Part shown: one piece after another, positions 1 through 32,936 of the stretch
Layout of the letters: each line of letters opens with the position of its first letter
Position numbering within the stretch: the stretch's first letter is position 1
DNA from: Alphaproteobacteria bacterium
GTDB lineage: Bacteria; Pseudomonadota; Alphaproteobacteria; Elsterales; Elsteraceae
Reading direction: 5' to 3'
NCBI GenBank assembly: GCA_004292755.1
Contig: RDXE01000066.1
Span: 1-33,986, forward strand
Length of the DNA stretch: 33,986 bases
Notes under the pieces: model-generated
The model's input: only the letters and a program-made list of their open reading frames with translations
Told to the model about the DNA's origin: nothing
Databases searched by the model: none
Made by a program: the position numbers and the translations under genes

Positions 1-624
1 GCCTTCCGCCTGGAGGTGATGCGCACCCAGCCGGAGATGTTCTCACTCGCAGAATGGCGGGCCTTGGCGGGCTTCGCCGCCACCGACGATGAGGCTTTCA
101 ACACCAAGCGCTTCAATCCGCTGCAACCACGTGTACCGGCAGGCAACCCAGGTGGAGGCCGCTGGACTGATGGCGATGGCGAGGTAACATTCGTTCAAGG
201 TCGTCGACCGCGACCGCCGCGCAGTGATCAAGCACCACGACCACCGAGCGAGCAGCAGCGGCCACCCAATCAGCCTAACCTGCAGACCCATCGAGAGCGC
301 CAAGACAGGTATGTCGACCCTCAGCCTGAGCTTCGCCGCGTGCTGGAGCGATCGACGCCAGATAAAGCGGACGCCAAGCAGTTTATCTACGTGCGTCCTG
401 GGACAGTCGAGGACTTAATGAGTGATTTTGATGCTATCGCTCGAGGCTCTCGAATAACAGAGACGCAAACATCGAAAGGGCGACTTCGACATGCTACGCT
501 TCCTGATGGTAGAACCGTTGTGGCGCGCGAGCATAGCTCCGACGGGCGACCGACCTTAGAGATCCAAGTACCAGAAGGTTATCCTGATCCTGCCCTTCCC
601 AGCCGAATAAAGGTACTCTACTAA
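1..624 (+). CDS. Portal/minor-head C-terminus fused to toxin-like domain (5' partial)
   Basis: The reading frame is open to the window edge, so the start is missing and about 207 residues are visible. The first part (residues about 1-50) contains SLAEWRALAG and then RVPAGNPGGGRWTDG. A stretch of this kind is typical of the C-terminal end of alphaproteobacterial phage portal or minor head proteins, where it acts as a linker to variable domains. A proline/arginine-rich low-complexity spacer follows (about 60-115). The last ~80 residues form a compact domain with LPDGRTVVAREHSS, GRPTLEIQVP and a final RIKVLY. This layout resembles small RNase-like C-terminal domains of polymorphic toxins. The stop overlaps the next start as TAATG, so the two genes are translationally coupled, as expected of a toxin and its immunity protein. 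The phage-linker reading is fairly firm. The toxin activity is inference; the C-terminus could instead be an ordinary structural extension. Confidence 0.6.
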   Translation, partial: AFRLEVMRTQPEMFSLAEWRALAGFAATDDEAFNTKRFNPLQPRVPAGNPGGGRWTDGDGEVTFVQGRRPRPPRSDQAPRPPSEQQRPPNQPNLQTHRERQDRYVDPQPELRRVLERSTPDKADAKQFIYVRPGTVEDLMSDFDAIARGSRITETQTSKGRLRHATLPDGRTVVAREHSSDGRPTLEIQVPEGYPDPALPSRIKVLY

Positions 625-1184
625 TGACAACCTATAGCAACGAGCTTGATGAGTTCCTGGCGATCGCAAAGGAACTTTCATTCGGATATGCGCGGTTGCG
701 CGTGTCTGCAATCGAGGCGCGCGGCTGGGTGGGGATACCACTTTGGTGTTCTTTAATTCCAAGTTGGGATGAGGTTACGACTCTGATTTTGGCACTCTCC
801 AAGTGCGGTGTTGATAAACTAGCGTGGATTGGGACTGAACAGTATGAGGTCACAGATAATCCAATCCAAGCTTTGACGAAGCAAAATATTCAAGATGCCG
901 AATTCAATCAGCCTCTAGTTCGCATAATGATTTCTGGAAACAAAAATTTTATCATGACTAGTGATACCGATTTACTCAGGTACGCAGCTGGCCCGATTGG
1001 TTTAATGGAAGGAATTTATGGAAAACCGTTATCAAAATACTTTGATGAAATGGAAGAACACACATCTTCAGAGTATTTCCGGGTTAGAATTCCGGCGCAG
1101 CTCCAGGAGGACTGGCTGCAAGATATTGCTGATTTGCGCAACCTGCTGGGTAGCGTCGAGGCTAAGCGTTCGCCTGCTACATAG
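624..1184 (+). CDS. Probable immunity protein (hypothetical)
   Basis: This gene encodes 186 residues and starts at the ATG of TAATG, overlapping the stop of the toxin-like gene by one base. I do not recognise the family. The protein is acidic and soluble, with no signal peptide or membrane segment. It has an internal WIGTEQYEVTD stretch and an acidic C-terminal helix region (EDWLQDIADLRNLLGSVEA). Its DNA is clearly poorer in G+C than the phage genes downstream, with many A/T-ending codons, which suggests recent acquisition. Position, coupling and composition are what one expects of an immunity partner for the upstream C-terminal domain. That role is inferred from context only. Confidence 0.55.
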   Translation: MTTYSNELDEFLAIAKELSFGYARLRVSAIEARGWVGIPLWCSLIPSWDEVTTLILALSKCGVDKLAWIGTEQYEVTDNPIQALTKQNIQDAEFNQPLVRIMISGNKNFIMTSDTDLLRYAAGPIGLMEGIYGKPLSKYFDEMEEHTSSEYFRVRIPAQLQEDWLQDIADLRNLLGSVEAKRSPAT

Positions 1185-1243
1185 CCGCGCGGGTAGTGAT
1201 CATGGTAAGGATGGGCGGGCGTTAGGATTCGATGTCAGCCTAG

Positions 1244-1471
1244 TCGACCATAGCCTTCCGTGATCCGGATCCGCGCCGTCCCTATGGTCGCGGGCTGGAC
1301 GAGGTGACGGCCCGCTTCCTGGCAGCGTTCTTCGAGAACCACGCCCGGCCCGACATGATCGTCACTGGCACCCGCGACGCACCGCTGTCCAAGGACGCAG
1401 CGAAGCGCTTGGCGGCTGAGTGGGAGAGTGGCCATCGCGGTGCGGCCCAGGAACACCGAGCGATAATGTGA
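1244..1471 (+). pseudogene. Orphan fragment of HK97-type phage portal gene
   Basis: A frame opens after a TAG at 1241-1243 and runs to TGA at 1469-1471. It encodes about 75 residues with no credible start near the homologous part. It reads AFRDPDPRRPYGRGLDEVTA, then RFLAAFFENHARPD, and KRLAAEWESGHRGAAQEHR. The order YGxG-L, FF-NGARP-like, and a final xAEWE-xHRG-xxxHR is the middle of HK97-family portal proteins (clip/stem region). Both the portal N-terminus and C-terminus are missing, so this is a remnant. It lies downstream of what looks like another portal C-terminus, which suggests a partial duplication left by recombination around the toxin/immunity module. Confidence 0.6.
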
Positions 1472-1738: not shown

Positions 1739-2137
1739 ATGATCTTGTTGACGCAGGCACCAATCACGGTGCCCCGCGCAGAAGAGCCGTGCCCGCCAGT
1801 TGGTGGCTTTGCACGCCTAGCCCCCCTGGACCTGTTTGCCCGGCTGGATGTCCAGGGATCGCCGGGTGCGCTGGTGCGGGTGCGGGTACAGACATCCCTG
1901 GATGGTGGGCTCACCTGGTTCGATCTGGCGGTCTTTGCCTTCACCGGTGCCGGGATGCTGGCAGCGCGCCTGCCCGGCACCTCCGCCTTGGCGCCCAGCG
2001 CCTTGCCACCGCTGGCCGATGGTCAGTCGCGCGACGGACCGTTTGGCAATCGATTGCGCGCCACAGTGGAAAGCACGGGCACTTGGGGACTCGGCACGTT
2101 GGTCACGGTGTTGGCCGGGGCAGGTGGGCCATGTTGA
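1739..2137 (+). CDS. Small phage structural protein, neck region
   Basis: The gene encodes 132 residues from the ATG at 1739, which has AGGAGA just upstream. An upstream in-frame extension exists, but it looks non-coding and lacks a ribosome binding site. The sequence is a beta-rich, hydrophobic, glycine/alanine-rich protein with VRVRVQTSLDGGLTWFDLAVF. This resembles small phage proteins encoded between capsid and connector genes, or decoration-type beta sandwiches. Its ATGTTGA junction makes the stop overlap the start of the connector gene, so the two are cotranslated. The exact role is unknown. Confidence 0.6.
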   Translation: MILLTQAPITVPRAEEPCPPVGGFARLAPLDLFARLDVQGSPGALVRVRVQTSLDGGLTWFDLAVFAFTGAGMLAARLPGTSALAPSALPPLADGQSRDGPFGNRLRATVESTGTWGLGTLVTVLAGAGGPC

Positions 2138-2706
2138 CCACTGTCGCCACGTTGGCCCAGGAACTGGACCGCGATCCAGCCGTGGAGGAGTTGCTGCTGG
2201 CGCGGCTGATCCGCGAAGCCTCTGCCACCATTGAGCGCGCCTGCCAGCGGCGGTTTGGCTATCAGCGCGCTACCGATCGACTGGTCGGCGATGGCGGACG
2301 CATCTTGGTTCTGCCGCGCACACCCGTGCACGAGATCCACGCCATTCACTGCGATGGTGTCCCGGTGCTGGATTGGAGCGTGCTGGACAGTCGTGTTGGC
2401 CTGCTGGATCGCGCCGCCGGGTGGGGTTGGCGTGCGGCGATGAGCTGGTGGGGCGATGGTCCCACCAGTCCGGCGCAGTTTGAAATCGACGCCACCGCTG
2501 GTTTTCGCCTGCCGGGTTGCCTGGAGCGCGATTTGCCAGAGGATCTGGAGCGAGCCTGCCTTGAACTTGCCAAGGCTTGGTGGTGGGCGCGTGGGCGCGA
2601 TCCGTTGGCAACGTCCGAAAGTGCCGGCAGCCTGAGCCACGGCCTGGCCGCTGGTCTGCCCATGGTGGTGGTCGAGTTGCTGCGACCCTGGCGACGGGGG
2701 ATTTAA
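2131..2706 (+). CDS. Phage head-tail connector protein (gp6-like)
   Basis: The protein has 191 residues. It starts at the ATG at 2131, which overlaps the previous stop. The pattern fits the gp6/YqbG-like head-tail connector family: an N-terminal helical part (LLLARLIREASATIERACQRRFG), then a beta part with LPRTPVHEIHAI, and a C-terminal helix LERACLELAKAWWWARGRDP. Such proteins form a ring under the portal that joins head and tail. The next gene starts two bases after the stop, which fits a continuous neck operon. The family call is good; the length is slightly above the usual 100-190 residues. Confidence 0.75.
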   Translation: MLTTVATLAQELDRDPAVEELLLARLIREASATIERACQRRFGYQRATDRLVGDGGRILVLPRTPVHEIHAIHCDGVPVLDWSVLDSRVGLLDRAAGWGWRAAMSWWGDGPTSPAQFEIDATAGFRLPGCLERDLPEDLERACLELAKAWWWARGRDPLATSESAGSLSHGLAAGLPMVVVELLRPWRRGI

Positions 2707-2707
2707 C

Positions 2708-3019
2708 ATGCAAGCCGCGCACTTCCAGGCGCTCCTGCACCGCACCGGCCAGCAGGTCGAGTGGTGGTCGGCCAGCAGCGGCTATCGCTATTGTGGCCCG
2801 GCTGAGGTGCAGGTGATGCAGGCAGCTGCCTTGCCGGGCGGCCTGCCGCAGCCGGCCCTCACGGTCACGGTGCCAGCGGCGGGCGTTCCTCCTGGCGTTA
2901 CGCCCGAGCCGGGCGATGCGATCCAATGGCAGGGCCGTCGGTTCACCATTGAGGGCCTGCCAAGCCCCATCCAGGCGCGTGCCGTCTGCCTTGGCTGGCG
3001 CTGCAACTGCCTTGGTTAG
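2708..3019 (+). CDS. Phage head-tail closure/adaptor protein
   Basis: This is a small protein of 103 residues directly after the connector gene. It starts MQAAHFQALLHRTGQQVEWW and has a central strand-rich part with GDAIQWQGRRFTIEGL. Both fit phage head completion/closure (gp16/SPP1- or HK97 gp7-like) proteins, which are short, beta-barrel-like and usually contain a W-x-G-x-x-Y/F-x-I motif. Gene order (connector, closure, terminator, tail tube) supports the call more than sequence alone does. Confidence 0.65.
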   Translation: MQAAHFQALLHRTGQQVEWWSASSGYRYCGPAEVQVMQAAALPGGLPQPALTVTVPAAGVPPGVTPEPGDAIQWQGRRFTIEGLPSPIQARAVCLGWRCNCLG

Positions 3020-3102
3020 CGGCCCCTCCTAACCAACACGTCTCACCTGCTCGCCTCCCGCCGACTAGCGGCGCTGGAGTGAGCGCCGATACGGAGACTG
3101 CC

Positions 3103-3537
3103 ATGTCGTACCAAGAGGACTGGCAGCGGCTGACCACGCGGTTCCAGGACGCGTGGGTGATGCCCAATCCCGCCGCTCCCCCTGATGTTCTGCCCCGCAC
3201 GCCCGTGGTGCTGGGCGACCAGCCCCAGCCACCCCCGCGCGAGGGCGGTGCCTTTGTGCGTGTGGACCTGCGCCCCGATGGACAGGAGCAGGTCTCTATC
3301 GGTAGCCCCGGTAACGACCGCGTTCGGCGCCGCTGGACTTTGCTGCTGCATATCCACCTGAACCGAACCGCATCGCTGGATCAACTCCACGCCCTCGTCG
3401 ATCACGCCGTCGCTGTGTTCCAGGGCTGGAGCGAGGACCGCCTGATCGCTGCCACGCCGTCCTTGGTCCGTGTGGACCTGCGCGGCGCCTGGAGTGTTGC
3501 CGTCGTCGCCGTGCCGATCAGCCGCGACAGCCCCTAA
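3103..3537 (+). CDS. Phage tail terminator protein
   Basis: The protein has 144 residues. I chose ATG 3103 over the GTG at 3079 because ACGGAGA lies at a proper distance before it. It begins MSYQEDWQRLTTRFQDAWV. The middle has a VDLRPDGQEQ strand and RRRWTLLLHIHLNR, where a minor tail-end protein ring would form its beta-sheet. The helix LDQLHALVDHAVAVFQGWSEDRL follows. Size, fold pattern and place between closure and tail tube genes match tail terminator (gpU/DUF4128-like) proteins, which cap the tail tube and join it to the head. Confidence 0.7.
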   Translation: MSYQEDWQRLTTRFQDAWVMPNPAAPPDVLPRTPVVLGDQPQPPPREGGAFVRVDLRPDGQEQVSIGSPGNDRVRRRWTLLLHIHLNRTASLDQLHALVDHAVAVFQGWSEDRLIAATPSLVRVDLRGAWSVAVVAVPISRDSP

Positions 3538-3565
3538 GCCCCGTCCTGTTCAAAGGAGTATCTCG

Positions 3566-4993
3566 ATGTCCGATACCAACCGCGTGCGCCTTGCCTATGT
3601 GGAGGAGGGAGTGCTGGGACAGACCCCGGCTACTCCCACCCTGCGCACGGCGCGGATCACGGGCGAGAGCCTCGTGTTCCAAATCACCAACACCACGTCC
3701 AACGAGTTGCGTGCCGATCGCATGACCGCTGACCTAGTCCAGACTGGCGCGCAGGTTGGTGGCGACCTCAATTTGGAACTCAGCCACCCGCTTTCCGGCA
3801 GCTTTGTCGGCGACATGATGGCAGCCGCCCTGTTCAATCACTGGGTCGAGCGGCCAGAGCGGATTGGCCCGCCCGCTTGCGGCGCTGTCTCCGGTGGGGC
3901 GACCTTTGGTGTCGCCAGCACCACAGGGTTCGCTGCAGGCCAGTTGATCGCAACCAGCGGCTACACCAGTGCTGCCAACAATGGCCTGTTCCGCATCACG
4001 ACCGTCGGCGCTGGCTTGACCGTGGCAGGTGCCCTGGTGAACGAGCCTGCCACCGCCAACAGCCGGATCAAGCTGGTCGGCCTGGAGGCTGCCAGCGGCC
4101 AAATCAGCGCAGTGGCTGACGGCTTGGCGGCCACAGGTTTGGACTTCACCACCCTGGACCTCGCGGTTGGCCAGTTCATCCGCATCGGCGGTGCCACGGC
4201 AGGTACCCGCTTTGCAACCGCAGGCACCAATGGGTTTGCCCGCATTGCAGCGATTGCCCCGGCAAAGCTGACCCTCGACAACCGGCCGGCGGGCTGGGCG
4301 GCCGATGCGGGAACGGGCGTGACGCTGCACCTGTTCCTCAGCGACCGGCTCGTCAACGGTGTCACCCGGCGCAGCTTCACCATCGAGCGTTGGTTCCAAG
4401 ACTTGACGGCTGAGTTGGTGGTGATGCGCGGCATGGTCCCCGGTCGCTTTGACCTCACCGTCGCTGCCCAGGAGATCGCCACGGCGCAGATCGGCTTTGT
4501 TGGCATGATGGCCGAGCATGCGACAACACCCCTGGGACCAGCCCTGCCCGCCACCGCTGAACCCGTGCTGAATGCCGTTGCCAATGTTGGCCGGATTGCC
4601 GAAGGGGGAGAGACCGTCAGCGGCCCCAACTTCATTCGCCGCTTCACAATGAAGCTGAACAACAGCCTGCGCGAACGCCAGGCCATCGGCACGCTGGGTC
4701 TTGTTGATGTCGGGGCTGGTCGCATCGATTTGTCGGGGGAGATCGAGACCTATTTTGGTTCGTCTGCGCTCTATCAGAAGTACCTCGATGGCGCAGAGAC
4801 CAGCTTGTCAATCCGGGTGGAGGCAGCGGGGCGTGCGCTCGTCCTGCAATTGCCGCTGGTCAAGTTCGAAAGTGGGCGGGTCAATGCGGCGGGGGCCAAT
4901 CAGGACGTGATGGCAGAGCTGACCTGGCGGGCCATCCGCGATCCGCTGACCGACGCGATGATCCTGATCGACCGCTTTGACCGCGCCGCCTGA
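3566..4993 (+). CDS. Phage major tail tube protein
   Basis: The protein has 475 residues. The start is ATG 3566, preceded by AAAGGAG; the 32 extra upstream codons overlap the terminator gene and are not credible. It begins MSDTNRVRLAYVEEGVLGQTP, then TGESLVFQITNTTSNELRADR and QVGGDLNLELS, a pattern typical of phage tail tube proteins of the TTP_13 type. The C-terminus has the tube core again (SGEIETYFGSSALYQKYLDGA, then DVMAELTWRAIRDP). At 475 residues it is longer than a basic tube protein. The middle (about 110-290) is rich in G, A and T and probably encodes surface-exposed inserted domains. It is followed 41 bases later by the chaperone gene. Confidence 0.85.
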   Translation: MSDTNRVRLAYVEEGVLGQTPATPTLRTARITGESLVFQITNTTSNELRADRMTADLVQTGAQVGGDLNLELSHPLSGSFVGDMMAAALFNHWVERPERIGPPACGAVSGGATFGVASTTGFAAGQLIATSGYTSAANNGLFRITTVGAGLTVAGALVNEPATANSRIKLVGLEAASGQISAVADGLAATGLDFTTLDLAVGQFIRIGGATAGTRFATAGTNGFARIAAIAPAKLTLDNRPAGWAADAGTGVTLHLFLSDRLVNGVTRRSFTIERWFQDLTAELVVMRGMVPGRFDLTVAAQEIATAQIGFVGMMAEHATTPLGPALPATAEPVLNAVANVGRIAEGGETVSGPNFIRRFTMKLNNSLRERQAIGTLGLVDVGAGRIDLSGEIETYFGSSALYQKYLDGAETSLSIRVEAAGRALVLQLPLVKFESGRVNAAGANQDVMAELTWRAIRDPLTDAMILIDRFDRAA

Positions 4994-5034
4994 GCCGCGC
5001 GCATCCCCCAAGACTGAGGGAAAGGACGAGTATC

Positions 5035-5433
5035 ATGGACATTCGCAAAGCATTCGCCACCGACCGCACGGCTGAGCAAGAAGGAGTCTGGGTGGCGTTG
5101 GGTGATGGAGCGCGGGTCAAGGTGGCCCGGTTCAACAATCCGCGCCATCGCTCGGTGCTCGATCGCCTGCGTCGCCCCTACCGGTCGCTGCTGATGGCGG
5201 GGCGGGATCTGCCGGAGGATGTTGCCGAAGCGATGGCGGTGGAAGCCACAGCCGAGGCATTGCTGCTGGACTGGGATGGCATCACCGAGAATGGTCAGCC
5301 GCTGGCCTATGGGCGGGAGACGGCACGCCGCCTGCTGGCTGAGCTTCCGGACTTTCGCGACGCGGTGGCCTATCTGGCGATGCAGGCCGAAACCTTCCGG
5401 CGTGAGGCCCTGGAGACCGCGGAAAAAAACTGA
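5035..5433 (+). CDS. Tail assembly chaperone G
   Basis: The protein has 132 residues and starts after GGGAAAGGACGAG. MDIRKAFATDRTAEQEGVWV and VARFNNPRHRS are typical of siphophage tail assembly chaperones of the gpG type. These bind the tape measure protein and recruit tail tube subunits. The rest is helical. The last codons are GAA AAA AAC TGA, which contain a canonical slippery heptamer, so a fraction of ribosomes should shift -1 and make the longer GT form. Size, location just before the tape measure gene and the slippery end make this a strong call. Confidence 0.85.
   Translation: MDIRKAFATDRTAEQEGVWVALGDGARVKVARFNNPRHRSVLDRLRRPYRSLLMAGRDLPEDVAEAMAVEATAEALLLDWDGITENGQPLAYGRETARRLLAELPDFRDAVAYLAMQAETFRREALETAEKN
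5424..5430 (+). promoter_or_regulatory. Programmed -1 frameshift site A AAA AAC
   Basis: Within the zero-frame codons GAA AAA AAC TGA, the heptamer 5424-5430 matches X XXY YYZ exactly. After slippage the next codon is CTG at 5430, and the -1 frame is open from there to TGA at 5787-5789. This would append 119 residues to chaperone G, giving a GT protein of about 251 residues, as in lambda gpG/gpGT. The zero-frame stop lies immediately after the heptamer. Confidence 0.85.
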
Positions 5434-5789
5434 CCTCTCGCCTCGCCTGGGATTTGTCCTGGAGCGAGGCCTCGCACTGGTTGGCAGCGGCAGCGGCGGA
5501 GGCGGGCGAGCCCGTCCCCGCCGACAGTCTGCCGCCCCCGATTCCCGCCGTGCTGGTCCCGGTGCGGGAGGCCTTTGCGCTGCTATCCCGCGCGCGGACG
5601 TGGACCACGGCTGGTCCGCTGCCGATCTCGATGGAGGCGACAGCGGCTTGGATGGCGATGGTTGGTCCCATCGACCCTGACGACCGGATGGAGATGCTGC
5701 ATCTCCTCGCGAGCCTTGACGATACCTGGCTGAGCGACTGGTACCGCCGCCGCGCCGCCGCGGCTGCCGCCGCCCCAGCCTCAGCCTGA
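5430..5789 (+). CDS. Tail assembly chaperone T part (frameshift extension)
   Basis: This frame is entered by the -1 shift at 5424-5430 and encodes 119 residues: LTSRLAWDLSWSEASHWLAA, an alanine/proline-rich stretch, then VREAFALLSRARTWTTAGPLPI. The end is an acidic helical part (DPDDRMEMLHLLASLDDTWLSDWYRRR) and an alanine tail. No good start codon with a ribosome binding site exists inside it; the first apparent start is a TTG at 5454. Translation as a separate protein is therefore unlikely and fusion to G is expected. The GT form normally binds the tape measure protein through this T part. Confidence 0.75.
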   Translation: MTSRLAWDLSWSEASHWLAAAAAEAGEPVPADSLPPPIPAVLVPVREAFALLSRARTWTTAGPLPISMEATAAWMAMVGPIDPDDRMEMLHLLASLDDTWLSDWYRRRAAAAAAAPASA

Positions 5790-5806
5790 CCCCTCGGAGA
5801 CGATGC

Positions 5807-8434
5807 ATGTCTGAGATCGATGCTGGCCCGGCTCAGCTTCCGGCGCCCGCAGCGCTGGCTGCAAGCACAGCGGCGTGGCGTGCCTATGGGCGATCCTTGG
5901 ATGATATCCAGCGGCGCAGTCGGGAGATCACGTCGCTGTCCCGCCAAGTCAGCGGCGCCTTTGACGCCTCCACCCGCAGCCTGGTCCGCAATGGGCAACA
6001 GGTTGCGGGCACCGGCTCCTCCTGGGAGCGGATGAAGGTGATCCTGCGCGATGCCGCGGGGGCGTGGGATCGGGAGGCCATCCGCTTCAGCATGTCCGCA
6101 GCCGACTCGATGGATCGCGCGTCAGAGCGCATGGAGCGATCACTGGCGCGCGGCTTTCAGCGGGTTCTGCAGGCGGGCCGAGCGGTGTTTCAGCAGTTTG
6201 GCAGATCTGGCTGGGCCGGTGGTGATCTGGGCACTGGCGGCTGGACCGGTGGCGGGCTGCCGGGGATTGCGATCCCAAACCTTGCGCTGCCCATGCCATC
6301 GGCACAGACCGGCGGTGGTGGTGGCGGGTTTGGTGGTCTGATTGATGCGTCCAGTGCCGTGATTGGCGGGCTGCGCCAGGTGGTTCCCTACCTCGGCTCC
6401 TTCGGGCAAGCGATTGGGCAGGTGCTGCCGGGTCTGGGGGCAGTTGCGTCGATTGCGGGGTTCATCAATCGCCCCAGCCTGTCGTCGGGTCTATCGGCTG
6501 CGGGTGGTTTGATGAGCGCTGGCTCGGCAATGGGTCTGTTGCCCGCCACGCTGGGGCCAGTCGGCGCGATCGTGAGCGCGGTTGGCATGGTGGTTAGCAT
6601 GTTTGGCAGTCGCCAGCGCCACCCCGGCGCTGGTGTTGACCTTGATTTCACTGGATCAGGCTTTACGACGGGCAAAGTGACAGCCAAACACATGGACCCA
6701 ACGCCGATGGTTGAGTTCGTGCGCACGGCAGCCGATGCGTTAAATCGCGTGCCCGAAATCCTGGGCGGGCGTTGGAGCGCCGATCCGCGGGCAGCGACGC
6801 TTGCCATGGGCGTCGGCAACGGCGGTCGCATCAGCGTCCACGGTTTTGGTGCCGTGGTGGAGCATGAAAAACCTGAAGATGCTCTGAATGACTTGTTCTA
6901 CCGCGCGATCCGCAACGTTCGGATGGAGGGCATCAGCGCAAGCATGCAAACCGTGCTGCGGACGTCCCGCGCGACGGATTTGAAGGGTCTGCTGGAGGAT
7001 CTGGACTTTGCCCGTCTGTATGACTCGTTGGGCGAGGCCCCGCGGGTGATCGGGCCGTTTGAGCAGCAGTTGGCCGCGCTCAACCAGCGCTTTGATGAGA
7101 TTCGCGAGCGTGCCCGCTCCCTCGAGCTGGCGATTGAACCCGTGGATGCCGCGCGCCTGGTCGAGCAACAGAAACTGCGCGATCGCTTTAATCAGGAAAT
7201 TGGGGATCAGTTGCTGCAGCGATTGAACCCAACAGCCCTTGCCTTGCGCCAGTTGGGTGAGGAATTTGATCTGCTGCGTCAAGAGGCTGTGGCATTGGGC
7301 GCCAATCTGGACCAAGTCAACCAATTGGAGCGGTTGCAGCGCCAGCAGATCATCCAATCCGCAGTGGACCGCATCCTGGATGCCGAACGCCAGCAGCAGC
7401 GGGATCGGCTGCAAATTCAGCTTGATGGTCATCGCCAGCAACTGCAGGCCGAACAGCGCCGGGTCGCCCAGTTGGAGCGACTGGTGCCATCGCTGAAGCT
7501 GGCCTTCGACCGGCTGGCTGTCGACCAAGCGCTATCGCCGCTGTCCCACGAGGATCGGCTGGCGGAGGCGCGTCGCCAGTTTGAGGAGGTGGCAACGCGT
7601 GCCGCAGGCGGTGATCTGGATGCGGCGGAAGACTTGGAGCAGGCGGGGCGAACCCTGTTGGAGGCCAGCCGAGGCTTCAATGCCTCCAACCAGGATTATG
7701 TTCGCGACTACGAGCGCGTGCGCGAGGTCCTGGCAAACACCCGCACCGTGGCCGAACTGCAGCTGGAGGAAGCCCGCCGCCAGTCCACGCTGCTGGAAAC
7801 CCTGATCACGCGGATCGAAGGCACGATCCGCGGCACCACGGCGATAGCACCGCCGCCGCGCGCGATTGGTGACGCCTATTTGGCTGCCAATCCCGACGTG
7901 GCGGCGGCGGTTGCGTCGGGGTTGTTCACCAGCGCAGAACAACATTATGAGATGTTTGGTCGCGCCGAGGGGCGAGCCTGGAGCGCCACACAGCCGATCA
8001 ACGTGGCAACCACCGACACCTTCAATGATCGCCAGCAGGCCTATCTGGATGCCAATCCGGATGTGGCGGCTGCCGTCGCAGCGGGCACCATCTCCAATGC
8101 TTACAGCCATTACCTGCAGTTTGGCCGTGGGGAAGGGCGCACCTTCGCCCGTGGTGGCTTTCTGCCTGCTGGTGAGATTGGTCTGGCGGGTGAGACGGGT
8201 CGGCCTGAGCTGATTTTGGGACCGGCCTATGTCGCCAACCCCGACGTCACCCGCCGAGTGATGGGGCAGGGCGAGGCGGCACCGGGTCACGCAGACGCCG
8301 TGGTTGGTCGCCTGGACCAATTGGTGGCGGTCAGCCACGACGGCGCCCGGCGGATCGATCAGGCGATCACCCGCCTCAGTGGGTTGATTGACGATCTGCG
8401 CGCCAACACCCAGCGCCTTGCGGCTCGGAGCTGA
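5807..8434 (+). CDS. Phage tail tape measure protein with NPDV repeats
   Basis: The protein has 875 residues and starts at ATG 5807 (GGAGACGATGC upstream). It begins with a helical scaffold. Residues about 130-280 are glycine- and alanine-rich and hydrophobic, as in tape measure proteins that cross the host membrane. Residues about 390-680 are heavily charged and glutamine-rich, with strong coiled-coil character (LEQAGRTLLEASRG, RDRLQIQLDGHRQQLQAEQRR). Two repeats follow at about 689-725 and 744-780, each AYL-ANPDVAAAV...HY--FGR-EGR. A third, shorter AYVANPDV copy is near 807-814. These repeats are otherwise seen in secreted or surface proteins. The motif AGEIGLAGETGRPELI between repeats 2 and 3 is a typical tape measure C-terminal signature. 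It sets tail length and is packed inside the tail tube. Confidence 0.8.
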   Translation: MSEIDAGPAQLPAPAALAASTAAWRAYGRSLDDIQRRSREITSLSRQVSGAFDASTRSLVRNGQQVAGTGSSWERMKVILRDAAGAWDREAIRFSMSAADSMDRASERMERSLARGFQRVLQAGRAVFQQFGRSGWAGGDLGTGGWTGGGLPGIAIPNLALPMPSAQTGGGGGGFGGLIDASSAVIGGLRQVVPYLGSFGQAIGQVLPGLGAVASIAGFINRPSLSSGLSAAGGLMSAGSAMGLLPATLGPVGAIVSAVGMVVSMFGSRQRHPGAGVDLDFTGSGFTTGKVTAKHMDPTPMVEFVRTAADALNRVPEILGGRWSADPRAATLAMGVGNGGRISVHGFGAVVEHEKPEDALNDLFYRAIRNVRMEGISASMQTVLRTSRATDLKGLLEDLDFARLYDSLGEAPRVIGPFEQQLAALNQRFDEIRERARSLELAIEPVDAARLVEQQKLRDRFNQEIGDQLLQRLNPTALALRQLGEEFDLLRQEAVALGANLDQVNQLERLQRQQIIQSAVDRILDAERQQQRDRLQIQLDGHRQQLQAEQRRVAQLERLVPSLKLAFDRLAVDQALSPLSHEDRLAEARRQFEEVATRAAGGDLDAAEDLEQAGRTLLEASRGFNASNQDYVRDYERVREVLANTRTVAELQLEEARRQSTLLETLITRIEGTIRGTTAIAPPPRAIGDAYLAANPDVAAAVASGLFTSAEQHYEMFGRAEGRAWSATQPINVATTDTFNDRQQAYLDANPDVAAAVAAGTISNAYSHYLQFGRGEGRTFARGGFLPAGEIGLAGETGRPELILGPAYVANPDVTRRVMGQGEAAPGHADAVVGRLDQLVAVSHDGARRIDQAITRLSGLIDDLRANTQRLAARS

Positions 8435-8437
8435 GCG

Positions 8438-10003
8438 ATGGACGGTGTCTTTGTGTTGACCTTGGAGGGGCTGCCGCCCGCGCCAAGTCCGATGGCGTCC
8501 CTCACGGTCGCTAGCACGCCGGGTCTCACCACTCGGCCTGACGACACACCAGCCGACGCGGTGTTCGAGGCCCGCTTGATCGACCCCGGCAATCTGGAGC
8601 GTCACCTGTTCAGCCTCGGGGCGACTCGAGGGCGCTCCCAGGTGGGGTTCGGTGCGATCACGCTGAACAATGCCGATGGCGGATTGGATGATGTGTCCAC
8701 CTGGGCCTGCGATGGTCGAGCGCTGGTGCTGCGCCGTGGCCCTGCGGGTGCTGCCTACCCCGGTGCCTTTCCCGTTCTGTGGCGTGGTACGGTCGAACAG
8801 GTGGAGGCAGACTGGCGCCGCATGACCATCCGGTTGCGGGACCGTCAGGCCGAAGTTGCAGAAAAACAGCTGCAGCCGTTGAGCTTTGCTGGAACCAACG
8901 CGCTGCCCGATGGGATTGAGGGCACGCCGGAGGATTTGAAAGGGCGTGCGAAGCCGCTGGTCTGGGGCCGCGTGCTGAACCTTGCCCTGCCGATGGTCAA
9001 CACCTCAAAGCTGATCTGCCAGATATCCACTGCACCGGTTACGGCCTTGTCTGCCGTGTACGACAAAGGTGCCGCCCTGACACTTGCGACGGAGCGGGCG
9101 ACCTTGGTCGATCTGCTGGCTGCCACGCCGGCGCCCGGCACTGTCGATTATGTGTTGAGCGATGGTGTTGGTGCGTTTTTGCGCCTTGGCTCGCCGCCCG
9201 TCGGGACAGTGACGGTTGATGTTGCCGCTGGGGTGGCGGGGGAGCGTTCAGCCGCATCGGTCTTGCGCGCGCTGCTCCTGGGCCCTGGTGGCCTGACCGC
9301 AGCGGATCTTGATAGCCCAAGCTTTGATGCACTGGCAGCGACCGCGCCGGCAGAGGTTGGCCTTGCCATCGACTCCGACTCGGCCACTGTCGGCGATGCG
9401 CTTGACTTGGTCGCAGGCTCGATTGGAGCGTGGTGGAGTGTCGATCGCCTGGGTCGGTTCCGGGTAGGCCGCTTAGTCGATCCCGCAGGGTTGCCCCCCA
9501 AACTCACCGTGACTGATCGCGAGGTGCTGGACCGCGGCGGTGGGTTTGAGCGGATTGCCAGCACGGATGTTGGGGGTGGTCTGCCCGTTGCGACGGTCCG
9601 GCTTGGCTATCAGCGCAACTGGTCTCCGATGGTGGAGAGCAGTGTTGCGGGGATTGCCCTGCCGCGGCTGGTTTGGCTGCGGGAGGAGTTGCGCTTTCAC
9701 GTGGTGGATCGTCCAGCCGTGCGGGCGCGTCATCCCCTGGCGCGCGACTTGGCGGTGACAACGGTGCTGCTGGAAGACGCCGATGCCCTGGCTGAAGCAA
9801 CCCGGCTCGCTGATCTCTATGGTATCAAACGCGATGTCTTGTCGATTGCCGTCCCCGCGGATCGGGTGACGGGCGTCGACCCGGGCGATGCCATTCGCGT
9901 TGTGCTGCCGCGCTTCGGCTTGGCCGCTGGCAAGACCTTCCTGGTGCTCGGCATGACTGAGGAGTTCGGACGCGGCATCGCGACCTTGCACCTCTGGGGC
10001 TAG
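8438..10003 (+). CDS. Phage tail hub/baseplate protein
   Basis: The protein has 521 residues and starts four bases after the tape measure stop. The first 130 residues hold FEARLIDPGNLERHLF, then FGAITLNNADGGLDDV and LWRGTVEQVEADWRRMTIRLRD, which match the N-terminal barrel of distal tail/hub proteins in siphophages. The middle has LPDGIEGTPEDLKGRAKPLVWG, also typical of this tail protein family. The C-terminal half contains WWSVDRLGRFRVGRLVDP and ends with FLVLGMTEEFGRGIATLHLWG, similar to gp27/gpD-like hub domains with an oligonucleotide-binding-like fold. It likely forms the tail tip ring through which the tape measure leaves. No peptidase or lysozyme motif is visible. Confidence 0.7.
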   Translation: MDGVFVLTLEGLPPAPSPMASLTVASTPGLTTRPDDTPADAVFEARLIDPGNLERHLFSLGATRGRSQVGFGAITLNNADGGLDDVSTWACDGRALVLRRGPAGAAYPGAFPVLWRGTVEQVEADWRRMTIRLRDRQAEVAEKQLQPLSFAGTNALPDGIEGTPEDLKGRAKPLVWGRVLNLALPMVNTSKLICQISTAPVTALSAVYDKGAALTLATERATLVDLLAATPAPGTVDYVLSDGVGAFLRLGSPPVGTVTVDVAAGVAGERSAASVLRALLLGPGGLTAADLDSPSFDALAATAPAEVGLAIDSDSATVGDALDLVAGSIGAWWSVDRLGRFRVGRLVDPAGLPPKLTVTDREVLDRGGGFERIASTDVGGGLPVATVRLGYQRNWSPMVESSVAGIALPRLVWLREELRFHVVDRPAVRARHPLARDLAVTTVLLEDADALAEATRLADLYGIKRDVLSIAVPADRVTGVDPGDAIRVVLPRFGLAAGKTFLVLGMTEEFGRGIATLHLWG

Positions 10004-10182
10004 TGGCCTCGCTCAACGTCTTGGATTTCCTGTGGTGCCGGACGCAGCCGTCCACGCTTCCGGCTGGCGCTGGCCTCCTTCTCTTCTCGGTTCCGGCAGT
10101 GACTGGCGCTGGCGCCAGCGCGCCCACGGTGTGGAAACCTGACCATGGCACGCTGTCTTTTGGCTTTTCCCAACTTGATTGA
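10003..10182 (+). CDS. Hidden 59-residue tail-region ORF
   Basis: A GTG at 10003 overlaps the TAG stop of the hub gene (TAGTG) and opens a 59-codon frame that ends in TGA at 10180-10182. It fills the apparent 141-base gap and overlaps the next gene by 38 bases. The product starts VASLNVLDFLWCRTQPSTLP, has a hydrophobic stretch GAGLLLFSVPAVTGAGA and ends KPDHGTLSFGFSQLD. It is too short for most ORF calls. The one-base stop/start overlap, like others in this operon, favours a real small tail protein. The function is unknown. Confidence 0.45.
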   Translation: MASLNVLDFLWCRTQPSTLPAGAGLLLFSVPAVTGAGASAPTVWKPDHGTLSFGFSQLD

Positions 10183-11026
10183 TGGCGATCAGGGCGCCGT
10201 GACGCTCAGTGGTGGCCGATGGCGCGCAGCGCTGCCATTGAGCAATCTCGGGCTGCCGCACTTGGCAGCGGTGGCGCGCTCTGAAACGGCTGCGCCGGAG
10301 GATACCTGGTTTCAGGTGGACCTCGGGGTGACCCGCGATGTTCGCGTGCTGGCGATCCCTCGCCACACCTTGTCGCCGTCGGCCAAGGTGCGGGTGCGCG
10401 CGGGTCCAGCTCCCCTGGTCGGGGTGGCCCCCATCGCAGACATCGACACCGGCTGGTCGGAGGTGTGGGGTCAAATCTACCCCGCTGGCACGCTGCCGTG
10501 GGGACACCCCTCGGTGTGGGATGGGCGGCTCAGAATGGAAGATACGGCCGGTTATCCCATGCCCGTTCTGGTGGTGTGGGAGCCTGCCTGCCTAGCCCGC
10601 TACTGGCGGGTGGACATTGAAGATGCGAGCAACCCCGCGGGCGTGATCGACCTCAGCCGCCTTGTGTTATCGCCTGGCTGGCAACCAAGCTTGAACCTCT
10701 CCTACGGCGCCCGGCTGGGCTGGGATATCGCGACAACAGCCGAGATCAGCCTCGGCGGCGCCCGCTGGTTCGATGTTCGCCCGCCGCGCCGGGTTGCCAG
10801 TTTCACGCTGGAGGGGTTGCCGGAGGATGAAATGCTGTCGGTCGCTTTCGACCTGCAGCAGCGGCTGGGTCTGCATCGCCAGCTGTTCTTCGTGTTCGAC
10901 CCGGACGACCGCTTTCACCGCCATCGTCGCAGCTTCCTCGCCACGCTGGGGCAAGTCTCCCGCCTGGAGTTTCCCTACTTCCGCCGGGTTTCCGCCGGCT
11001 TTGACATCGAAGAGGTAATCGCCTGA
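10145..11026 (+). CDS. Phage tail protein with discoidin-like domain
   Basis: The protein has 293 residues. The first ~90 show a jelly-roll, F5/8C-like pattern: ARCLLAFPNLIDG, LPLSNLGLPHLAAVARSE, TWFQVDLGVTRDVRVLAIPRHTLS. This is common in phage baseplate and tail-tip proteins that touch sugars. YWRVDIEDASNPAGVIDLSRLVLS follows around 157-180, again a discoidin-like strand pair. The C-terminal part, FFVFDPDDRFHRHRRSFLATLGQ, resembles phage tail proteins that connect hub to fibre. The stop TGA overlaps the fibre gene start (TGATG). A role in positioning the receptor-binding fibre is inferred from fold pattern and neighbours. Confidence 0.6.
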   Translation: MARCLLAFPNLIDGDQGAVTLSGGRWRAALPLSNLGLPHLAAVARSETAAPEDTWFQVDLGVTRDVRVLAIPRHTLSPSAKVRVRAGPAPLVGVAPIADIDTGWSEVWGQIYPAGTLPWGHPSVWDGRLRMEDTAGYPMPVLVVWEPACLARYWRVDIEDASNPAGVIDLSRLVLSPGWQPSLNLSYGARLGWDIATTAEISLGGARWFDVRPPRRVASFTLEGLPEDEMLSVAFDLQQRLGLHRQLFFVFDPDDRFHRHRRSFLATLGQVSRLEFPYFRRVSAGFDIEEVIA

Positions 11027-13692
11027 TGTCGACCGTCACACTCGATGGCATCGCATTCGACGATGCCGCCTTCAACGGCTATGGGTACTTGGACCCCATC
11101 ACCGTTGGCGGCCAAGTCTATCCTCGATTTCTGGCCCTGCATGTCGCGGCGTTGCGCGATGCTGCGCGGAGCCTTGTGGTGGCATCGGCGACTGCTGCAC
11201 CGTTGCAGGCTGGTCCCGTGACACTGACCCTTGCCCGCGCCGTGCCGCTGCCGGTTGGTCTTCCCGTGATCCTCTTGGCCGCCACCGACCCCGTCACCGA
11301 CTGGATGACTGGTCGGGTCACCAGCATCACCGATACCGTGGTGACCGTGGAGGTGGACAGGGTCAGCGGGTCCGGTACGCGCACCGGATGGACCCTATGC
11401 CCCATCGGCCAGTCAGGTCTGGTTGGTCCGCAAGGACCCGTTGGACCCGTTGGACCTGTGGGCCCACAAGGACCGGTCGGTCCAACGGGTCCCGCTGGTG
11501 CGCCGGGCGGCATCACCGCTGCGGCCGATGGCAGCCTTGCCAACCCAGGCTTTGCTTGGGTTGCAGACCCGGACACTGGCTTGCGCCGTGCGGGCTCGGG
11601 CGATCAGCGCGTTGTGGCGAACGGTGCCGATGTTCTGGCCTTGCGCGCGGCGACCCAAGCGGAGGCCGAAGCAGGGCTCCACGCCCTTGCCGTGATGACG
11701 CCGGAGCGGACCGCCCAGGCGATTGCAACACTCTCCCCCTCCGAACTGCGGAGTGCCTTCCAGCCGACCAACCTGTTGGCCCACTCCGGCGCACCGGGCA
11801 CAGCTGCGGCGTGGTCGACCCTGGATGTAACGGTGACGGCAGGTCAACCCGATCCATTTGGTGGGACAACTGCGGTTACCTTGACCGATAGCCTGGGCAG
11901 CAGCGCTGGCTACTTCAGCCAATCGGTATCGCTATCGGACCGCACGGGGTGGTGGACCGTGTCCCTTCATCTGAAACCGGGAACATCGACGCAAAGCGAA
12001 CTCTATGTCTCCATCGCGGGTGCCACGGTCGGTGTGTACATCCAGTGGCCAACGGCTGTTGCGACCCGCTTGCCGTCCCCCATTGCAGAGTCGACGGTAT
12101 CAACAACGGCCCTCAGCGATGGCTGGGTTCGTGTGACGCTGAGTGTCCAGTCACCCGCAGGCGGTGCTGGCCCACTATTTGTCTCGTTGTTCCCGAGTGG
12201 TAGTGGCCCATCTGCCCAGGGAACTCTCACCCTCGCGGCGCCTCAATTGGAGGCGGGTCCGAGTGCGGGTCCCTATGTGATGACTGGTGCGGCTGGGGCG
12301 ATGCCAACTCTGGTGCTGACCTGGGCCGACCGCCCCGTTCACGTGCTCGAGCCTGGGTCCGCGGGTCTGAGTGTCTGTCTGCCGCCTGTTTCCAGTCCGC
12401 CAGCAGGGCGCGCAGCCTTGCGCGTGTTGATCAATCGGGGGCGACGGCCTGTCCTTGTGCGTGACTCAACAGGTGCTAGCACGGTCGGATCTGTGGCACC
12501 GGGAGGCTGGCTTTGGTGCTTCCTTGCGACCACTGCAAGTGGAGCCCGCTGGCAACTTCAAAGTGGTCAGCCTGAGATGGATGCCTGCCGCGTGGCACTT
12601 ACCTCCCTCGACACTCGGGCGAGTGACGCCAATGATGGCGTCATGCTGTATCCTTTAACCGCCAATCGCTTTGTCTTGGTGATCCTTCAGTCAAACGCCC
12701 TGCGTATGATAGCGTTGGAGTGGACCGATACTGATATCCGTCTCTCTCCCACTGAAGCTGTAATTAATGCTGTGCCGACATCGTCTTTCTATTTTCCTGG
12801 CTTTGCGCTTCGACCGTGGGGAACAGGGGCCTTGATCACCTATATCGTCAATCCCGGCGGTGGGAATGAGTCTTACTATGCTCGCACTCTCACCATCGAC
12901 TGGTCGTCGATGGTTATCACTGTCAACACCGCTGCGACCTATCCGCTTCAGGCCGCAGCGGGGTGGGGGCTGTGTGAGGTCCGATCGGTTGATGGTGGCA
13001 ATACCTATATGGCGCTGTTCTCGGGTTACACCTCTGCGCTCACCAGTGTCCTGGTTGCAGTGATTGTGGCTGGTGTGACGTGCACCATCAGTACCCCGGT
13101 GACGTTGCCCGGCTTCACAGCGTCCGGATCCCTTGCGTGCTTTGACGCGACGCGGGCTGCTGCAGTCTATGTGAGCGGCGGACAAGTAATCGCAAACCGT
13201 TTGACAGTTTCCAGCGGTTCCGTGTCAGCTGGGCCGCAGATTACGGTAGATGCGGCTGCCACTGTGTCGTCGTGCGCGGTGTGGCGTCATTCAGCGACAA
13301 CGGCGACGGTGCTGTACCAGAAACAGGGTGTGCTGTTCGCGCGGCTGCTGACGGATACCGGCAGCACGCTGACGGTCTCAGTGGAACAACGTCTGCTCAG
13401 TGCGCCAATGGGCAGTGCGGTCAAGCCATTGTCTGCCTCGCAGGCATTGGTGCTGGTGTTTGAGCACGCCGTCGGCATGCAGTTGCAGCGGCTACGCTTG
13501 GTCGGCAGCTCGGTTGAGGTGGCGAGCGCTCGGATCGCTGCCCCCCTCCTGCAGCAGTGCAGCGTGCCAGCACCCTTGGAGTTTGCGAATGCCCAGCCCA
13601 CCCCCGACGGTGTGATCGGCCTTGGAGTGATCCGCCGTCACGGCGAGGGGTTTGCTGCTGTTGGCATCACCATGCTGTGTGGAGAGCTTTGA
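11026..13692 (+). CDS. Collagen-stalk tail fibre, receptor-binding
   Basis: The protein has 888 residues. The N-terminal ~120 form a small beta domain ([34 protein letters not shown]) that likely attaches to the tail tip. Residues about 131-162 are perfect Gly-X-Y repeats ([11 protein letters not shown]...), a collagen-like trimeric stalk. A phage-fibre segment [20 protein letters not shown] follows. Residues about 245-420 look like a carbohydrate-binding beta sandwich ([46 protein letters not shown]). From about 510 to the end are repeated strand units typical of a beta-propeller-like head ([34 protein letters not shown]). This is the probable host-recognition protein; the glycan target is unknown. 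Confidence 0.75.
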
Positions 13693-13693
13693 T

Positions 13694-14188
13694 ATGAGCA
13701 CGACTGTTGCGCTGATCGTGTCAGCATCGCGACCTGACGTTCTGGCGGTGCTGGCGGCGGATGAAACTGCCACCATTGACGAACACGGCGTGACCCAATG
13801 GGGACCCGATGGTGCCCCGCGGCGCATCACGCCGCGCACGGTCTATCCCGACCCGGAGCTGGTTGAGGTGACGGTGGCCGAGGTCGTACCGGCTGATCGC
13901 CTGAGCTGGGTGGACGGGGCACTGGTGATTGCTGCCTCCCCGAAGCTGCCGGTGCCGGACCGGGTGTCTCCCCTGGCGGCTCGCCTTGCGTTGCGCCGCG
14001 CTGGCCTGTTGGGCGCCGTGGAGGCCGCCCTCGCCCAGCCAACAACACCGGAAGAGTATCGCATTGCCTGGGAGTACGCGACTGAGCTCCATCGGACCGA
14101 CGCCATGGTGCACGCGGTCGGCACCCTGATCGGTCTGTCGGAGGAAGCCGTTGACGACCTGTTTCGCGCTGCGGCTAGCGGGCCGTAG
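13694..14188 (+). CDS. Fibre-associated small phage protein
   Basis: The protein has 164 residues. The start is ATG 13694, preceded by GGAGAG, one base after the fibre stop; upstream codons lie in the fibre gene. The N-terminus is a short beta part ending in VYPDPELVEVTVAEVVPADR. The C-terminal ~70 residues are helical, with LAARLALRRAGLLGAVEAALAQ and IAWEYATELHRTDAMVHAVG. That C-terminal pattern recurs in proteins encoded right after phage tail fibre genes, some of which help fibre assembly. I do not recognise a specific family, so the fibre-chaperone role is inference. Confidence 0.55.
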   Translation: MSTTVALIVSASRPDVLAVLAADETATIDEHGVTQWGPDGAPRRITPRTVYPDPELVEVTVAEVVPADRLSWVDGALVIAASPKLPVPDRVSPLAARLALRRAGLLGAVEAALAQPTTPEEYRIAWEYATELHRTDAMVHAVGTLIGLSEEAVDDLFRAAASGP

Positions 14189-32060: not shown

Positions 32061-32837
32061 GTGCAATGTCCTGGTTTCCTATCAGTGCGCGGACTTTTTC
32101 GTCTTCTGGTGGTGTCTGTTTTGCTTTCCATGTCTAAAGCGGAGGTGGCGCGTGCCGAAACCGCTCCGCTTCCACCTACGGTTCGTATGGTCTTTTTTTC
32201 GTTTCCTCCCTTCAATTATAGTGACGGGGATGGTATTCCAAGGGGGCATCTGATTGATCAATTCCAGCGAATGATTGCAGTCGCCGGGTTAGCTGGCTCT
32301 ATGCAAGAATTCCCAGTGGGCCGGGCGCGTGCAATGCTTATCGATGGCCGTGCAGACGTCATGTTAACTAATAACACAGCACCAGAACTTCAGGGTCATA
32401 TTTTTTCCACTGCCGAGCCAATAATGATGATTGTGATAGAGATAGTTTCATTACAGTCATTCTCTTCTTTAACAATCCCAGATATGCTGAAGGGGCGCTC
32501 CGTGATCTTACAGGAACGCTATCATTATTCTGGTATCATGGATATTTTGACCAATCCAGAAAATGCCGTGCGGGTATCTGGCTTTGCACGGGACGCTGTA
32601 TCGGGGCTTCGCATCCTGCTGGCAGGGCGTAGTGACCTTTACATCCAATATCAAAATCATGTTGATGATGCGATTGCACGCTTAAATGTAACGCAGCTAC
32701 TTTATCGCTACCCGGTAAGTCGCATCCCTGTTTACATAAATGTTTCCAAGCGGGTCCCCTATGCTCAGGCACTGTTGGATACATTGGTCGATGCCTTCAC
32801 AAAGATCAACGCGTCAGGAGTCGGATGGTCGCGCTAG
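32061..32837 (+). CDS. Periplasmic solute-binding protein (SBP_bac_3-like), AT-richer copy
   Basis: The protein has 258 residues from GTG 32061 (AAAGGAAACTTGCG before it). A signal peptide (LFRLLVVSVLLSMSKAEVARA) precedes the mature protein. VRMVFFSFPPFNYSDGDG, VGRARAMLIDGRADVMLTNN, PELQGHIFSTAEP, GRSVILQERYHYSG, SGLRILLAGRSDLYIQYQN and RIPVYINVSK give the order of SBP_bac_3-type proteins. It has a close paralogue 99 bases downstream. Its codons are clearly richer in A and T than that paralogue and neighbours, which suggests different recent histories. There is no permease gene nearby, so it may serve an unlinked transporter or a sensor. Confidence 0.75.
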   Translation: MQCPGFLSVRGLFRLLVVSVLLSMSKAEVARAETAPLPPTVRMVFFSFPPFNYSDGDGIPRGHLIDQFQRMIAVAGLAGSMQEFPVGRARAMLIDGRADVMLTNNTAPELQGHIFSTAEPIMMIVIEIVSLQSFSSLTIPDMLKGRSVILQERYHYSGIMDILTNPENAVRVSGFARDAVSGLRILLAGRSDLYIQYQNHVDDAIARLNVTQLLYRYPVSRIPVYINVSKRVPYAQALLDTLVDAFTKINASGVGWSR

Positions 32838-32936
32838 ATCAATCGACGACCGTCGGTTCTCAGATCCCCTCTCCGGGTGCTTGTTGACATCAACCGCTTA
32901 TGGCAGCTTTTGGGTAGAAACACCGAGGAGCTGGCA

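What the first reader, a model, noticed from the sequence alone, without database searches (positions are those of the whole stretch)
1..1184. Toxin/immunity cassette fused to a phage portal/minor-head C-terminus
The first gene joins a phage-type linker (RVPAGNPGGGRWTDG) to a compact C-terminal domain with GRTVVAREHSS and GRPTLEIQ. It is translationally coupled (TAATG) to an AT-rich gene of unknown family. This is the layout of a toxin and its immunity protein, but carried by a phage structural protein, which would let the virion or tail deliver the toxin, or let the prophage exclude rivals. Seen: the fusion, coupling and composition change. Inferred: toxin and immunity roles.
Basis: partly seen in the sequence, partly recalled or inferred. 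Interest (0 to 1): 0.7.

Follow-up and report, generated by a model that had tools for sequence, protein, structure and literature searches.

The report
Toxin domain on phage portal protein
A bacterial genome carries a virus-derived protein, the ring through which a phage loads its DNA, whose tail end is a swappable toxin-family domain also found on known bacterial weapons, followed by a likely antidote gene, which suggests that some phage-like particles may be armed.

Summary
The window starts at a contig end, so gene 1 is cut. In a same-genus genome the matching gene is an HK97-type phage portal protein (Pfam Phage_portal): gene 1 is a portal 3' end, a linker and a C-terminal domain. That domain (residues ~108-207) belongs to a toxin family that no Pfam or NCBIfam model describes. 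A profile of 15 other members hits the window protein at E=1.4e-15, the next ORF at 1.3. Members end Rhs, LXG and CdiA-type proteins and are followed by a small gene. The window's own partner gene (624-1184; TAATG; 46% GC) has no relative in what was searched, so its immunity role rests on position, coupling and composition. Other alphaproteobacterial portals end in different toxin-like domains (Colicin E5 RNase, HNH-like) after a similar linker, most with a small gene close behind; one lies in a terminase-portal-protease-capsid cluster of gene-transfer-agent type. This is polymorphic-toxin architecture with the portal as carrier, like MuF phage toxins but on another carrier. Toxicity, immunity and delivery are untested; a BECR fold was not shown.

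The parts
1..93 (+). 3' end of an HK97-type portal gene (cut by the contig start)
   Evidence: Matches residues 282-312 of the G008 portal query, 52%, E=0.002; P0001 residues 1-110 match the G008 portal-fusion frame, 48%, E=3e-12; that frame is Phage_portal by Pfam.
112..174 (+). Linker FNPLQPRVPAGNPGGGRWTDG between portal and effector part
   Evidence: similar linkers (QPR...GGQW) follow the portal in G008 and in other alphaproteobacterial portals.
175..321 (+). Pro/Arg/Gln-rich spacer
   Evidence: by eye; GC 0.63 over 175-339.
322..621 (+). C-terminal toxin-family domain (residues about 108-207 of gene 1); stop TAA at 622-624
   Evidence: Profile of 15 other members: E=1.4e-15 among 1,100 segments, next 1.3; leave-one-out 5.6e-16; AlphaFold2 pLDDT 93.2.
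624..1184 (+). Candidate immunity gene, 186 aa, start codon overlaps the toxin stop (TAATG), GC 0.461
   Evidence: no relative found; not in the usual partner family.
1253..1468 (+). Relic of a second portal copy (portal residues about 87-183, internal deletion, two TAG at its 5' side)
   Evidence: DNA identity 96% (1253-1298) and 91% (1295-1450) to the genome's own portal on C38.
2131..2706 (+). Head-tail adaptor gene (start by eye)
   Evidence: phrog_442 head-tail adaptor 2.1e-25 on the frame 1681-2706.
2708..14188 (+). Rest of the head-tail module: tail terminator, tail tube, assembly chaperone, tape measure, tip and fibre genes
   Evidence: phrog_179, phrog_290 / Phage_tube_2, phrog_313, phrog_973, phrog_8917, phrog_8610, GTA_spike_fiber.

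Best explanation
It is a polymorphic-toxin cassette whose carrier is an HK97-type phage portal protein, in a chromosomal head-tail module that looks like a domesticated prophage or gene-transfer-agent-like element. Shown by sequence: portal end, linker and a toxin-family C-terminal domain in one frame; a translationally coupled downstream gene; a relic of a second portal copy; different toxin-like domains on related portals. Inferred: the downstream protein neutralises the toxin in the producer; the toxin is built into the particle with the portal ring, is freed (perhaps at the linker) and enters recipient cells with the DNA, so that cells without the immunity gene are harmed. The most likely activity is nucleic-acid cleavage, by analogy with the Colicin E5 and HNH-like domains on related portals; the active site was not established. 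My odds: toxin domain on a portal 0.9, gene 2 as its immunity 0.7, delivery by particles 0.35.
For: Portal identity. Toxin family and its place on Rhs, LXG and CdiA-type carriers with a small gene behind it in 14 of 14 genome loci. Confident fold of its own. Coupling and GC drop. Duplicated portal segment with different continuations in G008, and a portal relic in the window. Seven of the 22 portal C-termini read for this carry a linker and an extra C-terminal part; G027 has Colicin_E5 over the Pfam cut-off; coupled or overlapping partner genes in G279 (C17), G184 and G355.
Against: No toxicity data. Gene 2 has no relative found and is not in the family of the 15 usual partners. The window domain and the Rhizobium one are the weakest full-length members, and the window lacks the nearly invariant Arg before the last Tyr. 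Part of the portal is missing from the assembly, so the window's portal may be broken. The module lacks a terminase next to it; a portal that is no longer built into particles would deliver nothing. Most portals read had no such extension: 15 of the 22, and none of 18 more printed.
Confidence: 0.72

Rival explanations
1. A selfish addiction or exclusion module: the toxin and antidote stabilise the prophage-derived locus, or stop the cell when a rival phage attacks, and no particle delivers anything; the portal end is only where the cassette landed.
For: The window portal may be incomplete and the module is split from its terminase. In genus g163 portal-toxin-partner loci stand without recognised phage neighbours (by eye).
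Against: The toxin is in frame with the portal and linker in several lineages, and family members elsewhere sit on export carriers, not in stand-alone toxin-antitoxin pairs in the loci seen.
Confidence: 0.25
2. A decayed remnant: portal, toxin and partner gene are passing through, no longer made or active.
For: Portal relic at 1253-1468, missing portal middle, broken G184 and G122 copies.
Against: Both window frames are intact and coupled; invariant positions of the toxin family are kept.
Confidence: 0.2
3. The C-terminal domain is an ordinary structural extension of the portal and gene 2 a head protein.
For: Portal C-termini vary in length; gene 2 lies where a head gene could.
Against: The same domain ends Rhs, LXG and CdiA-type proteins; the same-genus portal carries other C-termini.
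Confidence: 0.04

Closest known systems
MuF polymorphic toxins of temperate phages (Jamet et al. 2017, PMC5576092, passages read; also listed in Zhang et al. 2012, PMC3482391, passages read)
   Same: A phage head protein as carrier, a variable C-terminal toxin domain, a small gene behind it, location in the packaging/head region.
   Different: The MuF gene is a separate gene just downstream of the portal gene; here the portal itself is the carrier, and Pfam finds Phage_portal and no MuF domain.
Bxa of Bacteroides stercoris prophage (PMC11699363, passages read)
   Same: Prophage head protein with an antibacterial C-terminal domain neutralised by adjacent immunity proteins, shown by experiment there.
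   Different: MuF carrier and ADP-ribosyltransferase toxin; no portal.
CdiA, Rhs and LXG polymorphic toxins
   Same: The same C-terminal domain family occurs on them with a small gene behind it.
   Different: Carriers are cell-surface or secretion-system proteins; their partner genes form one family to which the window's does not belong.
Gene transfer agents of the RcGTA type
   Same: Chromosomal head-tail cluster without integrase seen; G027 has terminase, portal, protease, capsid in the order recalled for RcGTA (named by eye).
   Different: No toxin on a GTA portal was found in the papers searched; DNA transfer is untested here.

Membership tests
Polymorphic toxin system | Variable C-terminal domain shared between different carriers | tested here: met
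   Same domain on Rhs (3), LXG (1) and PT-VENN (1) proteins among 10 scanned frames, and on a CdiA-like and a PT-TG protein; window member at E=1.4e-15.
Polymorphic toxin system | Same carrier with different C-termini in relatives | tested here: met
   G008 tandem portal copies share 503 bp at 88% and no DNA similarity beyond; g163 portals 86-87% identical with ends 28% identical between G279 and G355.
Polymorphic toxin system | Immunity gene directly downstream | tested here: inconclusive
   Coupled gene present but without any known relative.
Polymorphic toxin system | Toxicity neutralised by the partner | not testable with these tools
   Needs experiment.
MuF toxins | N-terminal MuF domain (PF04233 or PF06152) | tested here: not met
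   No MuF match in P0001 (cut gene) or in the five portal-fusion frames of G008, G279 and G355, which match Phage_portal.
MuF toxins | Encoded just downstream of a portal gene | tested here: not met
   The toxin domain is in frame with the portal.
BECR-fold RNase toxins | BECR fold | tested here: inconclusive
   Confident model; no Foldseek match at E<=0.001; CDI toxin complex 5t86 at Z 4.8, below teneurins at 6.9.
Gene transfer agent | Complete chromosomal head-tail-packaging gene set without integrase | tested here: inconclusive
   Head-tail module on C38/C91 and TerS-TerL-protease on C3 look complementary; regulation and other genes not examined.
Gene transfer agent | Particles that package and transfer host DNA | not testable with these tools
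   Needs experiment.

The most novel reading that the evidence does not exclude
Portal proteins are a carrier class of polymorphic toxins: gene-transfer-agent-like or domesticated phage particles of Alphaproteobacteria carry toxin domains on the portal ring and inject them together with DNA, so that DNA transfer is safe only for kin with the matching immunity gene, and cassettes are exchanged by recombination in the repeated portal segment.
Probability: 0.35. Interest if true: 0.88.

Novelty: new variant of a known kind. Interest (0 to 1): 0.68.

Why it matters
If portals deliver toxins, some gene transfer agents or domesticated phages are weapons as well as DNA carriers, which bears on the open question of why such costly particles are kept. 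It extends phage-borne toxin carriers from MuF to the portal, links one uncharacterised toxin domain across Rhs, LXG, CdiA-type and phage carriers, and can be tested directly by expression and particle proteomics.

Tried and rejected
Led nowhere: viral contigs with P0001, P0002, the G008 portal and the toxin alignment (no relative confirmed); sequence searches of the PDB with P0001, P0002 and the toxin profile (hits such as PPR proteins and lactate racemase judged chance); Foldseek against PDB and BFVD (nothing at E<=0.001); structure of P0002 without an alignment (pLDDT 39, not used further); plasmid searches with four other portal C-termini (none for three; for the G355 end one unannotated stretch of a Priestia megaterium plasmid, 37% identity, E=1e-7, not followed). 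Promoter and terminator scan unremarkable. No tRNA in L008 or L091. PADLOC: nothing. BECR-type chains were not at the top of the structure lists; this absence excludes nothing.

Considered and rejected: the hit in G355:C108 lies in an ABC1-kinase-like frame (named by eye) and was dropped. The Rhizobium partner gene looked a little like P0002 by eye, but BLAST and hhalign gave nothing. The terminase on C94 belongs to another element with its own portal. Portals of G049, G271, G144, G064, G249, G163, G240, G241, G077, G336, G133, G360 and G013 showed no toxin-like C-terminus; G030 and G225 run into other sequence. A family search around G027 held only two genomes with identical proteins, so it could not test polymorphism there. 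Paper searches.

Full report
1. What is in the window. Gene 1 (1-624) is open at its 5' end because the window starts at the first base of contig C91. It reads portal-like tail, linker RVPAGNPGGGRWTDG, a Pro/Arg-rich spacer and a C-terminal domain. Gene 2 (624-1184) begins in TAATG. GC is 0.649 over 1-174, 0.535 over 340-621, 0.461 over 624-1181 and 0.628 for the window. Pfam, NCBIfam, PHROGs and PADLOC give no model over a cut-off or convincing match for gene 1 or gene 2.

2. The carrier is a portal protein. In a search of 9 genomes of the family, P0001 matched in 2: its own and a same-genus genome, G008. On G008 contig C159 (5,561 bases) the matching frames are Phage_portal by Pfam (2.5e-12 for the cut copy, 2.2e-47 for the longer one). 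With that portal as query the window genome holds three pieces: residues 13-176 on C38 minus strand (75% identity) running to the contig end; residues 282-312 at window 1-93 (52%, E=0.002, weak alone); residues 87-183 at window 1214-1468 with two TAG. C38 carries a major capsid gene upstream of the portal (phrog_10, 1.2e-46). The simplest reading is that C38 leads into C91 with about 105 portal residues missing. Those residues matched nowhere in the assembly, as expected of an unassembled repeat; this is inference.

3. Duplicated cassettes. In G008 a 503-bp portal segment is repeated at 88% DNA identity with no DNA similarity beyond it; the small genes behind the copies are 54% identical in protein to each other, and the first is 31% identical to a third. 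In the window, DNA after gene 2 is 96% (1253-1298) and 91% (1295-1450) identical to the genome's own portal on C38, with a deletion between. This resembles displaced cassettes of Rhs and CDI loci (recalled).

4. The C-terminal domain is a toxin-family domain. It weakly matched a CdiA-like plasmid protein of Duffyella gerundensis (E=2e-3) and a 'putative toxin-like protein' of Paenibacillus phage Likha (E=1e-2), which carry Fil_haemagg_2 with PT-VENN, and PT-TG, respectively; each has a small gene right behind it. An alignment of the three was used to scan genome contigs: 236 stretches matched a pattern and 14 encoded relatives, from Proteobacteria, Firmicutes, Bacteroidota and a Treponema. The domain is at the C-terminus of its frame in 14 of 14, and a frame of 122-159 codons begins between 10 bases before and 145 bases after the stop in 14 of 14; the script looked only from 40 before to 200 after. 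Of 10 of these 14 frames scanned with Pfam, Rhs repeats were found in 3, LXG with PT-TG in 1, PT-VENN in 1 and no carrier domain in 5. Because the pattern includes SSDGRPT, conservation of that motif is partly by selection. So a profile of 15 members without the window was run over 1,100 open segments of C91, C38, C94 and part of C3: the window protein scored E=1.4e-15, the next segment 1.3. Leave-one-out over 17 members gave E from 6e-47 to 6.4e-16, the window 5.6e-16. Invariant in the alignment: G63, R69, S72, T78, Y100 of the 100-residue piece; the nearly invariant R99 is Leu in the window. Pfam and NCBIfam scans of the 17 members gave no toxin family.

5. Structure. AlphaFold2 on the window domain with 14 relatives gave pLDDT 93.2, pTM 0.84, order H-E-E-H-E-E-E-E-E. 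Foldseek found nothing at E<=0.001. VIA-align over 993 of Foldseek's chains put teneurins in 8 of the first 9 rows (6fb3_A residues 2621-2709, Z 6.9, rmsd 2.2, 76 aligned) and the CDI toxin complex 5t86 at rank 16 (Z 4.8, rmsd 3.9, 79 aligned). Z below 8 may be only a common arrangement. By passages of PMC5851990 that stretch lies in the antibiotic-binding-like domain, directly after the chain leaves the YD shell. A BECR fold was not shown.

6. Gene 2. The small partner genes of 15 relatives form one family: each of 15 is found by a profile of the other 14 at E<=2e-9. The Rhizobium partner and the window's gene 2 are not members (E 0.15 and 0.18 in a two-sequence search, scores below zero). 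Gene 2 matched only itself in 385 class genomes, nothing in plasmids and nothing in viral contigs. Its immunity role is inferred from position, coupling and composition.

7. Other portals. With the G008 portal, 36 of 385 class genomes matched at 1e-10. With a g163 portal, 89 of 385 matched at 1e-30, in 90 rows. I read the C-termini of 22 of the 90 for this (the 21 with frames of 463 aa or more, and G013); tails of 18 more were printed and showed no such extension; 50 were not read. Seven rows in six genomes carry a linker and an extra C-terminal part: G279 (two), G184, G355, G027, G158 (the last two identical over the query) and G122. G027: Colicin_E5, 38.6 bits over a cut-off of 25, an 80-aa gene 16 bases behind, a terminase-like frame before and protease-like and capsid-like frames after (named by eye). 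G279 (C17) and G184: HNH-like ends (G184: AHH 0.043 and DUF2380 0.008, both under cut-off) with overlapping partner genes 40% identical to each other; G184's partner is weakly DUF2019 (7e-4, under cut-off), that of G279 matches nothing. G355: HNH-like end (by eye; no Pfam match), 28% identical to that of G279, partner starting in ATGA, weakly HEAT and DUF2019. G279 (C90): a Cys-containing segment running in frame into TPR repeats, no separate partner seen. G184 has a TAA inside the matched stretch and G122 an odd short end with a 91-aa frame 102 bases on; both look broken. In g163 I recognised no phage gene next to these portals (by eye).

8. Element type. The window module runs from capsid (C38) through portal, adaptor and tail genes to about 14188; genes on both sides look like host genes by eye. 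Terminase_6C in the whole genome gave two places, one of them under the cut-off: C94, an element with its own portal, and C3, where TerS, TerL and a prohead protease lie together. The C3 protease matches positions 19-165 and the C38 capsid 293-626 of phrog_617, so the loci look complementary. This fits a dispersed domesticated element, but also two remnants.

9. Literature. Passages of Jamet 2017 (PMC5576092) define MuF toxins by a MuF gene just downstream of the portal gene; passages of Zhang 2012 (PMC3482391) list MuF as the phage-packaging carrier; passages of PMC11699363 report an antibacterial MuF toxin with two immunity proteins. None of these passages, nor those of PMC7824862, describes a toxin fused to a portal, and no title or abstract start listed names one; searches returned no paper. 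The listed papers were otherwise not read, and the library lacks most subscription papers, so this is not proof of absence.

10. Mechanism. Shown: homology and gene layout. Inferred: neutralisation by gene 2; incorporation with the portal ring; release, perhaps at the linker by the prohead protease; entry with DNA. HK97-type portals have their C-terminal end towards the head interior (recalled), which would place the toxin inside the particle.

Noticed in passing
L091:4651-6129 (G000 contig C3, 24650-26128, minus): A prohead protease (Peptidase_S78, 29.1 bits, cut-off 21) whose C-terminal part matches Pesticin, a phage-lysozyme-like toxin domain (54.9 bits, cut-off 25.8): a second head gene of the same genome with an effector-like C-terminus.
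   Followed up: no
model of window 322-621: The toxin domain's best structural matches are the antibiotic-binding-like domain of animal teneurins (Z 6.9, rmsd 2.2, 76 aligned), which stands where Rhs toxins stand; a possible common origin, below the trust limit of Z 8.
   Followed up: partly
L007:958-4921 (G008): A row of small genes behind the two portal-toxin copies, the first three related to each other (54% and 31% identity to the first): perhaps an array of immunity genes.
   Followed up: partly
L077 and L075 (G030, G225): Portal frames that run after residue 225 or 350 of the query into unrelated, tail-protein-like sequence: look like deletions inside gene-transfer-agent-like clusters.
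   Followed up: no
L048:5879-7978 (G279 contig C90): Portal, linker, Cys-containing segment and TPR repeats in one frame of 699 aa: perhaps toxin and immunity fused.
   Followed up: no
window 32061-33752: Two adjacent related frames (45% identity over 240 residues) in a stretch that dips to 49-52% GC.
   Followed up: no
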